From the NCBI GenBank assembly GCA_035948415.1, contig DASZJD010000094.1, positions 1 to 64,000 of the forward strand: a stretch of DNA of 64,000 nt, in the 5' to 3' direction. The stretch comes from Acidimicrobiia bacterium. GTDB taxonomy: Bacteria; Actinomycetota; Acidimicrobiia; IMCC26256; PALSA-555. A model generated the notes under the pieces. The model made no database searches, had not been told where the DNA came from, and saw only the letters and a program-made list of their open reading frames with translations. Below, one piece after another: positions 5,527 through 7,411 of the stretch. Position 1 is the first letter of the stretch, and the number at the start of each line of letters is the position of its first letter. Position numbers and translations under genes: made by a program.

Positions 5527-5610
5527 TGGGCGAGGGGGGACTTGAACCCCCATGTCCTTGCGGACACAGGAACCTGAATCCTGCGCGTCTGCCAATTCCG
5601 CCACTCGCCC
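5527..5610 (-). tRNA. tRNA-Leu (anticodon CAG)
   Basis: The minus strand folds into a class II cloverleaf. The acceptor stem GGGCGAG (from 5610) pairs with CTCGCCC (5528-5534), followed by discriminator A (5527). The anticodon stem CAGGA/TCCTG carries the loop TTCAGGT, so the anticodon is CAG (reads CUG). A long variable arm (GTGTCCGCAAGGACAT) is typical of tRNA-Leu, and the T-arm is GGGGG-TTCAAGT-CCCCC. No CCA is encoded. A near-identical copy of its 5' half lies at 7372-7411. Confidence 0.95.
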
Positions 5611-5718
5611 GGCAGGCGAAGACCCTACTTTCAGAGGACACGCGCCCGAGACTCGGGCCCGAGCGATACTGCCTCCGCTGCTCGCGTCTCCTGGTCGACA
5701 TTGGTAATCGCGGGTGGT

Positions 5719-6522
5719 CTAACTACTCGGGACACACGGCTGGTGCGGTTCAATGGGGTCACAGATGATCACGTGGTGGGTTGTGGGTGGCGTGCCCGGC
5801 TGCGATGGGCCTCCTTGCTGCGATGGGCCTCCTGGCTGCGGCACGGACGGGGGCACCGTGTACTGCGGGGGCGCCTGGTAGAGCGGATACGTCGTCGATG
5901 TCGTTGGCAACGTGAGCGTGGTGGAAGCGCTTGGGTGGACCGTCTTGACGCCGCCACTCGATCCGCTGCGGCTCCATGCCCACCCACCGAGCGCGAGCAG
6001 GGCCGCGATGAGGACGCCGGCCCCCACACCCGCCCAGCCGCCGGGGGCCCCCCGGATCCCTCCCGCGACGAGGGCGCGCAGCGTCTGCCCGGCGGCGGCC
6101 CGTGCCGCACCCACGGCCACGGGAATCGTGACCAAGGCCGCCGGGTTTTCCTCGACGCCTGCGACCAACCCTTCGGCCTCGGCCTCGACGGCCGGCGCCA
6201 CGCCCGACAGCCCCATCCGAGCCCTGAACCAGCTGTCGTAGACGTTCGCGCGGAAGAAGTCCACGATCGCTTGGCTGCTCTGGCCGACCATGGCTCGGGC
6301 CTGGGCCAGTTGGGCTCGGACAACGGCGATCTCCTGGCGGGCCAGGTCGATGGAGGACTGTTCGGTCCACCCCCCGGAATCCTCGACGGCCCATCGAAAG
6401 TTCGGGTCGATTCCTTTACTGAGTTGGGCCTGCAAGCTGCGCTCAGCGGATTGCTGGAGGGTCTGGAGGCCCTGGATCCACTGATCCAGCACTTGGGCCT
6501 CAAACCCGGGGACTGCTCCCAT
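5719..6522 (-). CDS. Unrecognised single-span membrane protein with Pro/Ser/Thr-rich tail
   Basis: I do not recognise this 267-residue protein. Residues 1-110 are mostly helical and Gln/Ala-rich (AQLAQARAMVGQSSQAIVDFF), residues 110-150 are small-residue-rich, and a strong hydrophobic segment lies near residues 172-190 (GVGAGVLIAALLALGGWAW). After it comes a low-complexity Ser/Thr/Pro/Gln tail, including two GGPSQ repeats, ending with a Cys pair in HHVIICDPIEPHQPCVPSS. That suggests a cytoplasmic helical domain, one span and an exposed flexible tail. There is no N-terminal signal. It starts three bases after the stop of the SH3-like gene, so the two form one operon. Both lie between tRNA-Leu and a copy of its 5' half, so they may have arrived together by site-specific insertion. 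Confidence 0.7.
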   Translation of the reverse strand: MGAVPGFEAQVLDQWIQGLQTLQQSAERSLQAQLSKGIDPNFRWAVEDSGGWTEQSSIDLARQEIAVVRAQLAQARAMVGQSSQAIVDFFRANVYDSWFRARMGLSGVAPAVEAEAEGLVAGVEENPAALVTIPVAVGAARAAAGQTLRALVAGGIRGAPGGWAGVGAGVLIAALLALGGWAWSRSGSSGGVKTVHPSASTTLTLPTTSTTYPLYQAPPQYTVPPSVPQPGGPSQQGGPSQPGTPPTTHHVIICDPIEPHQPCVPSS

Positions 6523-6525
6523 CGC

Positions 6526-7014
6526 TCAGTCCTCGACCGACGATTCGTCCGGAGCGCGGGCCGGAAGTTCCAGCGTTTGCAGACTCAGCCCGTCGTAGCG
6601 GTGGACCCGCTGACCTTGCAGGTCAACGAGCCACGCGGTGTCATCGCGCACCACGAGGCCGATCTCGAACGCCTTGCGCCGGAAGGTGTCGGCGTCAAGG
6701 CGCCGGGCAGCGAGGTCGTCGAGGAGCCGCCCGTACTCGCCGAGCGTGCCCTCCAGGACCGCGAGCACCTCGTCGGCTGCCTCGGCAGGCGCGTCCAGGG
6801 CCACGAGCCGCCGGCCGTCCGTCCACGCGGACCACCCGTTGGAACACAACACCCTGGCCCAGCCATCAGCGCGCTGCTCCAAGACACGCACCTCGAGACC
6901 AGCGTCCAAGGTCGCGTCTGCCGACCGGGTCGGGTCGGGCTCATTCCAGGCCCACAGCCCTCCCGCAGGAACCCGATGCGTCGGAACGAACGGCTCGGTC
7001 ATCACCATCCCCAC
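6526..7014 (-). CDS. SH3-like domain protein of unknown function
   Basis: A 162-residue soluble protein. The first ~70 residues look like a bacterial SH3-type barrel (VPAGGLWAWNEPD..., LEVRVLEQRADGWARVLCSNGWSAWTDGRRLV), with the spaced W-A-x-V and G-W-x-A-W pattern. The remainder is charged and probably helical (EVLAVLEGTLGEYGRLLDDLAARRLDADTFRRKAFEIGL), ending with a short beta-like repeat (DDTAWLVDLQGQRVHRYDG). It has no signal peptide and no membrane span. It is the upstream partner of the membrane protein ending at 5719. The start could be the GTG/ATG cluster at its N-terminus; the SH3-like part starts about 10 residues in. I assign no function; the pairing suggests a shared task at the membrane. 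Confidence 0.65.
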   Translation of the reverse strand: MGMVMTEPFVPTHRVPAGGLWAWNEPDPTRSADATLDAGLEVRVLEQRADGWARVLCSNGWSAWTDGRRLVALDAPAEAADEVLAVLEGTLGEYGRLLDDLAARRLDADTFRRKAFEIGLVVRDDTAWLVDLQGQRVHRYDGLSLQTLELPARAPDESSVED

Positions 7015-7371
7015 GTGCCGATGGGCGGTCGCCGATCGGCGCGGGCGGCGCGCTCTACGCCCCAGCGCCCGCGCATGCTGCCGCGATACCGCCGACCTCG
7101 ATCACGAGAACCACGGGCGGCCGACCGGAAGTTGCCGACACCCACCCTGACCACCCCCCGACGCCGCCCGTCGGGCCCTTCACCCCAAACCATGCGCCGG
7201 TCTCACCCACCTGTCAATCCTGCCGAAGCCAGCGGTCACCCGGAACAGCGGGGCGCGCCGCGGTACCGCCCGCCGGGACGGCGGGTCACGGCGACTCGCG
7301 GGAACGGCACGCACAAGCAGGTCAACGGGAGTATGCGTTACCGATGCGGACGAAGGCGCAGGAGCCCGAGA
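7015..7371. other. 357-base gap without a convincing gene
   Basis: This lies between the start of the SH3-like gene and the tRNA-Leu half repeat. I see no frame with convincing coding character on either strand, no intact tRNA and no clear integrase attachment core apart from the repeat at its right edge. It probably holds the promoter of the leftward two-gene operon. Confidence 0.5.
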
Positions 7372-7411
7372 AACCTGAATCCTGCGCCTCTGCCGATTCC
7401 GCCACTCGCCC
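7372..7411 (-). repeat. Partial copy of tRNA-Leu 5' half (possible attachment-site scar)
   Basis: Forty bases match 5571-5610 with only two differences, in the same orientation. On the minus strand the copy begins with the acceptor strand GGGCGAG, runs through the D-arm and stops just past the anticodon bases. The anticodon 3' strand, variable arm, T-arm and 3' acceptor strand are absent, so it cannot be a working tRNA. With the intact tRNA it forms a direct repeat bracketing about 1.8 kb with two unrecognised genes. A tRNA-targeted insertion is one explanation; a tandem tRNA duplication with partial deletion is the other. Confidence 0.8.

What the first reader, a model, noticed from the sequence alone, without database searches (positions are those of the whole stretch)
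5527..7411. tRNA-Leu 5'-half direct repeat brackets a 1.8-kb segment of unknown genes
40 bases (38 identical) at 5571-5610 and 7372-7411, same orientation, covering acceptor 5' strand to anticodon. The segment between holds two unrecognised, co-oriented genes. Integration at tRNA genes usually duplicates the 3' part; a 5'-half duplication with the break in the anticodon loop is unusual. No integrase is visible, so if it was an element it has lost mobility or used another element's enzyme.
Basis: partly seen in the sequence, partly recalled or inferred. Interest (0 to 1): 0.55.

Follow-up and report, generated by a model that had tools for sequence, protein, structure and literature searches.

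The report
Small gene insert splitting a tRNA-Leu
A two-gene, 1.8-kb piece of DNA appears to have landed in the anticodon loop of a bacterium's leucine-tRNA gene, rebuilt the gene from its own end and pushed the original front half aside: a rare but already documented style of insertion, here in a very small piece without an integrase gene.

Summary
In detail: an intact tRNA-Leu(CAG) at 5526-5610(-) and a 5'-half copy at 7372-7411(-), 38/40 identical (40/43 extended). The match stops just past the anticodon loop and no 3' half follows.

The one same-genus genome searched (G001) has the same SDR gene followed by one intact tRNA-Leu, 85/85 identical to ours, with neither half-copy nor cassette. 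The half-copy keeps the SDR neighbour and ancestral leader; the intact tRNA has another leader. So the half-copy is the displaced original 5' half. The 3' side could not be compared: both genomes are rearranged there.

An 87%-identical block covering most of the insert (5686-7270) lies on another contig of this genome, inside an island at tRNA-Met with a tyrosine integrase. The 267-aa protein has no other clear relative in 395 genomes of the class (two trace hits).

Best reading: an integrase-less, CIME-like remnant integrated through the anticodon loop. A 5'-half target is rare but catalogued (159 of 3919 Islander islands). New member of a known kind; modest interest. Bolder, unexcluded: the orphaned tRNA promoter now drives the cargo.

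The parts
5526..5610 (-). Intact tRNA-Leu(CAG): by inference a hybrid, insert-derived 5' half and host 3' half
   Evidence: ARAGORN, Rfam 54.1 bits; 85/85 identical to G001; leader not similar to the ancestral one
5611..5685 (.). Left end of the insert, leader of the rebuilt tRNA; no similarity to the C81 block
   Evidence: TAGGGT 11 nt before the tRNA, read by eye
5686..7270 (.). Block shared with the tRNA-Met island of the same genome (C81:18061-19649)
   Evidence: blastn 1394 of 1611 columns identical
5719..6522 (-). 267-aa gene, one hydrophobic stretch and P/Q-rich tail, no known family
6526..7014 (-). 162-aa gene with an SH3-like domain (weak hits below cut-off)
7271..7371 (.). Right end of the insert; no similarity to the C81 block
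7372..7411 (-). Displaced 5' half of tRNA-Leu (extends to 7369 with one more mismatch)
7354..7389 (-). 10-bp inverted repeat (7354-7363 / 7380-7389) joining the half-copy's anticodon stem side to the insert end
   Evidence: 4 of 2000 shuffles reach it; whole fold not exceptional, z -1.75
7412..7433 (-). Ancestral tRNA leader with TACGCT box (7424-7429), directly after the SDR stop
   Evidence: alignment to G001
7434..8255 (-). SDR-family gene, syntenic marker shared with G001
   Evidence: adh_short_C2 3.7e-62; 80.7% to L081

Best explanation
The 5611-7371 segment is a small non-autonomous mobile insert in the tRNA-Leu(CAG) gene. Its attachment site carried a copy of the first ~40-43 nt of tRNA-Leu. 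A tyrosine recombinase, whose gene is not in the insert (lost, or supplied in trans), exchanged strands in the anticodon loop. The host's leader and 5' half were pushed 1.8 kb upstream and decay there as the half-copy; the insert's 5' half joined the host's 3' half to give the working tRNA gene, now under an insert-supplied leader or read through from the cargo. The cargo is an intact two-gene unit that also sits in an integrase-bearing tRNA-Met island of the same genome. Shown: the repeat and its break point, the G001 site without the insert (5' side), which copy keeps the ancestral leader, and the cargo's second home. Inferred: a tyrosine recombinase as agent, loss or borrowing of its gene, expression of the rebuilt tRNA.
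For: Repeat ends at the anticodon-loop edge, with the fragment upstream and in the same orientation as a 5'-type island requires (configuration rule read). G001: SDR, 22 bp, intact tRNA-Leu, no insert. Half-copy leader resembles G001's (0.0015 of 2000 shuffles reach it) and the intact tRNA's leader does not (0.12 against the half-copy's, 0.23 against G001's); part of that similarity is the shared SDR end. No second 5'-half copy found in 40 homologous loci. The cargo block is repeated, 87% identical, inside a tRNA-Met island with integrase and 3' tRNA fragments. Cargo ORFs intact, dN/dS 0.785 and 0.429. Precedents: Islander 5' fragments, pTN3 on the tRNA-Leu 5' half.
Against: No integrase in the segment and none of the genome's other four integrase-family genes lies on a fetched piece with a tRNA. 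The 3' flank of the tRNA is not homologous to G001's, so the empty site is shown on one side only. The shared cargo block stops 75 and 101 bp short of the tRNA copies. Single instance; GC gives no foreign signal. No attP-like DNA was found in viral contigs.
Confidence: 0.72

Rival explanations
1. Rearrangement rather than insertion: the cassette - tRNA-Leu - glycosyltransferase stretch formed elsewhere, and a break in the resident tRNA-Leu joined the SDR end and 5' half to it.
For: The 3' flanks of G000 and G001 differ, and the msrB-ridA-zwf-gnd genes that follow the tRNA in several relatives are on other contigs in both. The glycosyltransferase gene was not found in 7 relatives (no positive control).
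Against: Needs a second intact tRNA-Leu(CAG) at some time; only one full-length copy is found with this query in G000. The break at the anticodon-loop edge would be a coincidence unless a recombinase acted.
Confidence: 0.15
2. Incoming linear DNA carrying cassette plus tRNA-Leu was joined by homologous recombination in the tRNA 3' part and by an illegitimate join at the other end.
For: Would give the same anatomy without an integrase; the homology of the cargo block ends inside the segment on both sides.
Against: Does not predict a junction at the anticodon-loop edge. The cargo's other copy is in an integrase island.
Confidence: 0.07
3. The half-copy is a decayed complete tRNA-Leu gene from a tandem duplication, and the cassette arrived separately.
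For: A TCCTG, as in the 3' anticodon-stem strand, follows the loop after 9 extra bases.
Against: 40/43 over the 5' half against chance level over the 3' half (598 of 1000 shuffles) is not uniform decay. ARAGORN found exactly one tRNA-Leu in 37 of 40 homologous loci and none in the other three.
Confidence: 0.03
4. Assembly artefact: a chimeric join of the draft genome (133 contigs) at a tRNA repeat.
For: The contig begins 5.5 kb away and the genome is a draft.
Against: The copies differ at 3 of 43 positions, so they are not one repeat seen twice; the half-copy's flank matches G001.
Confidence: 0.03

Closest known systems
tDNA genomic islands with a 5' tDNA fragment (Islander catalogue, PMC4383910, passages read)
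   Same: Intact tDNA plus displaced 5' fragment upstream in the same orientation, crossover at the anticodon loop.
   Different: Islander requires an integrase gene and at least 2 kb; this segment has no integrase and is 1761 bp.
pTN3-type integration of Thermococcus (PMC5495485, PMC8371274, passages read)
   Same: Uses the 5' half of a tRNA-Leu; 41 bp shared there, 40-43 here; the rebuilt tRNA is separated from its original promoter.
   Different: pTN3 carries its integrase gene, which is split on integration; no integrase fragment is seen here. Archaeal plasmid against a bacterial two-gene segment; no homology claimed.
CIME (cis-mobilizable element; PMC5704250, passages read)
   Same: Flanked by attL- and attR-like copies, without integration or transfer genes.
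   Different: CIMEs derive from ICEs or IMEs; no such parent is known here.
The tRNA-Met island on C81 of the same genome
   Same: Carries the same two-gene block, 87% identical over about 1.6 kb.
   Different: Uses a tRNA 3' part, has an integrase and is 6.4 kb; no tRNA-Leu sequence was found on C81.

Membership tests
tDNA-targeting genomic island (Islander signature) | Intact tDNA and a terminal fragment of it in the right orientation and on the right side | tested here: met
   rule read
tDNA-targeting genomic island (Islander signature) | Integrase gene within the interval | tested here: not met
   two ORFs only, no integrase hit; interval also under Islander's 2-kb limit
tDNA-targeting genomic island (Islander signature) | Empty site in a relative | tested here: inconclusive
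   5' side met in G001; 3' side not comparable
CIME | att sites kept, integration and transfer genes absent | tested here: met
   repeat at both ends; no such genes
CIME | Derived from an ICE or IME | not testable with these tools
   no parent element found
pTN3-type integrative element | attB in the 5' half of tRNA-Leu | tested here: met
pTN3-type integrative element | pTN3-like integrase split by integration | tested here: not met
   no integrase match in the proteins of the segment; the 75- and 101-bp ends are too short for one
Integron gene cassette | attC hairpin and an IntI-class integrase | not tested
   Only a 10-bp inverted repeat was seen. Of five PF00589 genes in the genome, only the C81 one was scanned in NCBIfam: best hits Xer models, a weaker integron-integrase hit, all below cut-off

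The most novel reading that the evidence does not exclude
Promoter swap by 5'-half insertion. Unlike a 3'-type island, a 5'-type insert places its cargo behind the host's native tRNA promoter, which stays with the displaced half, and makes the tRNA-Leu(CAG) gene depend on the insert for its front end. The two-gene unit plus tRNA could then be one transcript starting at the orphaned tRNA promoter and running through the half-tRNA hairpin. Integrase-less cassettes moved in trans into tRNA 5' halves would gain both expression and host dependence. All three genes are on one strand, the ORFs are intact and the TACGCT box is kept; transcription is untested.
Probability: 0.1. Interest if true: 0.62.

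Novelty: new member of a known kind. Interest (0 to 1): 0.34.

Why it matters
It is a fresh-looking case (the displaced half is still 93% identical) of a tRNA gene rebuilt from its 5' side by a very small DNA piece. Surveys that demand an integrase and at least 2 kb, as Islander does, would miss such mini-inserts. If the orphaned tRNA promoter drives the cargo, it would show how cargo can gain expression and make itself hard to lose without carrying mobility genes.

Tried and rejected
Cassette elsewhere. 267-aa gene: none in genome contigs, viral contigs, phages or plasmids; beyond its two copies in G000 only trace hits (E 5.7e-4 to 8.4e-4) in the genome searches. 162-aa gene: none in viral contigs or phages; one 36.5% match in a Streptomyces plasmid record.

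Viral DNA carrying a tRNA-Leu 5' half as attachment site: 0 exact matches for this tRNA; for a variant pattern one contig, which holds a complete tRNA-Leu. Rejected.

Idea that the cassette family always sits by tRNAs, because ARAGORN lists tRNAs near other SH3-domain genes on C92 and C29. Rejected: Rfam does not list the C29 one, the C92 genes are unlike the cassette, and none of 21 relatives' stretches scanned has a tRNA.

Idea that the intact tRNA's leader was copied together with the 5' half: not supported. Residual 3' half after the half-copy: none. Promoter and terminator scans of 5400-8400: nothing found. AlphaFold2 of the 162-aa protein alone: pLDDT 47.5, not used. Defence library: nothing for the two genes. 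Solved structures: nothing under E 0.6.

Ancestral 3' neighbours were traced to other contigs, so the 3' flank question stayed open. The output was cut in the middle and the match list was truncated; I used only rows shown. Paper searches. Of four papers (PMC4383910, PMC8371274, PMC5495485, PMC5704250) I saw passages only; Williams 2002 is not held and I know it only through one search's citation.

Full report
OBSERVATION. The window is the first 64 kb of contig C94 of an unnamed draft genome, G000 (3.40 Mb, 133 contigs); base 1 of the window is the contig's end. One tRNA-Leu(CAG) lies at 5526-5610 on the minus strand (Rfam 54.1 bits). A second copy of its 5' part lies at 7372-7411: 38/40 identical, or 40/43 if extended to 7369, with mismatches at tRNA positions 17, 24 and 41. 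The anticodon loop is positions 33-39, so the match breaks at its 3' edge. The 100 bases beyond hold no remnant of the tRNA 3' half (598 of 1000 shuffles score as high), while the 5' half scores 37 against a maximum of 15 in 1000 shuffles. Between the copies are two intact ORFs, 3 nt apart, on the same strand as the tRNA.

COMPARATIVE TEST. Across the order tRNA-Leu(CAG) lies near a gene I call fhaA (name from my reading of the sequence; recalled, not tested against a family library). 57 of 61 genomes, G000 included, have an fhaA match; I fetched the loci of 40 of the 56 others. ARAGORN finds tRNA-Leu(CAG) in 37 of the 40. By the coordinates it is within 400 bp of fhaA in 27 of the 37 and 1.0-5.1 kb away in 10. 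A scan for a second 5'-half copy (at least 25 of 36 nt) found none in the 40 loci; in 4 of them (L088, L096, L103, L117) it did not find even a first one. G001, the only same-genus genome in the search, has fhaA, a large gene that looks like an MMPL transporter (my reading), the orthologous SDR (80.7% protein identity), and, 22 bp after the SDR stop, an intact tRNA-Leu 85/85 identical to ours. It has no half-copy and no match to either cassette protein. In the window the half-copy stands where G001 has the tRNA, with the same 22-bp spacing to the SDR stop and the same TACGCT box. The 28 nt before the half-copy resemble G001's (0.0015 of 2000 shuffles reach the score; these 28 nt include the end of the SDR gene). 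The 28 nt before the intact tRNA resemble neither the half-copy's (0.12) nor G001's (0.23). Hence the half-copy is the original 5' half, and the intact gene got its 5' half together with the segment.

LIMIT OF THE TEST. The 3' side cannot be used. In several relatives (G003, G005, G007, G009, and more distant G002 and G018) the tRNA is followed, in some after extra DNA, by genes I read as msrB, ridA, zwf, gnd and, in some, pgi (the output was cut). In both G000 and G001 msrB, ridA, zwf and gnd lie together on another contig, and no tRNA is on the stretches fetched. So the genus is rearranged there. The glycosyltransferase at 4358-5296 has no match in 7 relatives searched, a search without a positive control. 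A rearrangement instead of a clean insertion is therefore the main rival.

THE CARGO. The block 5686-7270 is 87% identical (1394 of 1611 columns) to C81:18061-19649 of the same genome. There it lies in a 6.4-kb interval between tRNA-Met(CAT) and a 54-bp copy of the tRNA-Met 3' part at C81:15040-15093, with a tyrosine integrase next to the tRNA (Phage_integrase E 9.6e-19) and a second 49-bp fragment further out at 11715-11763. So the same two genes sit in an ordinary 3'-type island. The homology stops 75 bp and 101 bp short of the two tRNA copies. Apart from tRNA-Leu parts, these end stretches have no match in the genome under E 0.01. The proteins are 81% and 88% identical to their paralogues; dS is 0.16 for both and dN/dS is 0.785 and 0.429, so the frames are kept under weak to moderate constraint. 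GC gives no signal: segment 69.8%, window 71.1%. The 267-aa protein has one hydrophobic stretch and a P/Q-rich tail (by eye) and no family hit of note. In 395 genomes of the class, G000 included, it is found in G000 (two copies) and as trace hits in two others (E about 6e-4). The 162-aa protein has an SH3-like domain (E 0.013 in Pfam, 3e-4 to TIGR04211, both below cut-off). That domain recurs on four other contigs of this genome (C29, C126, C92, C62) and in 11 of 99 relatives, often in tandem. Function is unknown; an envelope role is a guess from the hydrophobic segment and the domain.

MECHANISM. The anatomy is that of a tRNA island whose attachment site carries the front of the tRNA gene: 5' fragment upstream, same orientation, break at the anticodon loop. 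Islander lists 159 of 3919 islands with a 5' fragment and treats the anticodon loop as a standard subsite (passages). In Thermococcus the pTN3 integrase acts on the 5' half of tRNA-Leu with 41 shared bp, and the rebuilt tRNA is separated from its original promoter (passages). The agent here is inferred to be a tyrosine recombinase; its gene is not in the 1761-bp segment. Of five integrase-family genes in the genome, the C81 one sits at tRNA-Met and the other four lie on fetched pieces with no tRNA. A 21-nt tRNA-Leu core with up to 5 mismatches is in none of the nine pieces scanned. An element that keeps both att sites but has lost integration and transfer genes is called a CIME (passages). The segment fits that description, though no parent element is known.

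CONSEQUENCES WORTH TESTING. The rebuilt gene is the only full-length tRNA-Leu(CAG) found with this query in G000. In six genes of the window CTG is the second most used leucine codon (78 CTG, 141 CTC, 19 others). The gene is therefore probably needed, and must be expressed without its native leader beside it: either from the insert's leader (a TAGGGT 11 nt upstream, read by eye; the promoter scan found no consensus promoter) or by read-through from the cargo, whose last gene ends 108 bp before it on the same strand. Conversely, the native leader now faces the cargo. The half-copy can form a 10-bp hairpin with the DNA beyond it: positions 23-32 pair with 49-58, using the changed base 24; 4 of 2000 shuffles and 4 of 2000 random window stretches reach this. 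The overall fold is not exceptional (z -1.75; 12 of 200 shuffles fold as well). I leave its meaning open.

RARITY. In a search of 61 genomes (G000 included) with the whole tRNA, the only listed match restricted to the 5' part is ours. Matches restricted to the 3' part are listed in G020 (C82:59465-59514, 4.2 kb from a fuller copy), and at contig edges in G055 and G036. The list was truncated, so this is a statement about the rows shown.

VERDICT. A recent insertion, shown on one side, of an integrase-less two-gene piece through the 5' half of tRNA-Leu. Rare in style and very small, but of a known kind.

Noticed in passing
L041/L042 (G000:C81:11715-21579): Tandem islands at tRNA-Met(CAT): the tRNA plus two 3' fragments (15040-15093 and 11715-11763), an integrase and the cassette paralogue.
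   Followed up: partly
L043 (G000:C15:43440-44937) and L045 (G000:C25:1-700): 36-nt matches to a tRNA-Leu 3' half at C15:44668-44703 and C25:384-419, with similar flanking DNA on both contigs; the first is 1.2 kb from tRNA-Leu(GAG).
   Followed up: no
L081:4321-8130 (G001, 3' side of tRNA-Leu): ORFs of 510, 330 and 202 aa with no Pfam match beside G001's tRNA-Leu; the 330-aa one has a vaguely recombinase-like look (my reading).
   Followed up: partly
G000 contigs C29, C126, C92, C62: The 162-aa protein's SH3-like domain recurs, often as tandem copies, in larger proteins, some with a membrane segment.
   Followed up: partly
window 4358-5296: Glycosyltransferase-like gene (Glyco_tran_28_C 3.3e-11) beside the tRNA with no match in 7 relatives.
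   Followed up: partly
L138 (G000:C98) and L139 (G001:C103): The msrB-ridA-zwf-gnd genes that follow tRNA-Leu in several relatives lie on another contig in this genus.
   Followed up: partly
G020:C82:59465-63839: A tRNA-Leu-like gene with a 3'-part copy 4.2 kb away, a candidate ordinary 3'-type island in a relative.
   Followed up: no
window 7354-7389: A 10-bp inverted repeat links the half-copy to the insert end and uses one of its changed bases.
   Followed up: partly
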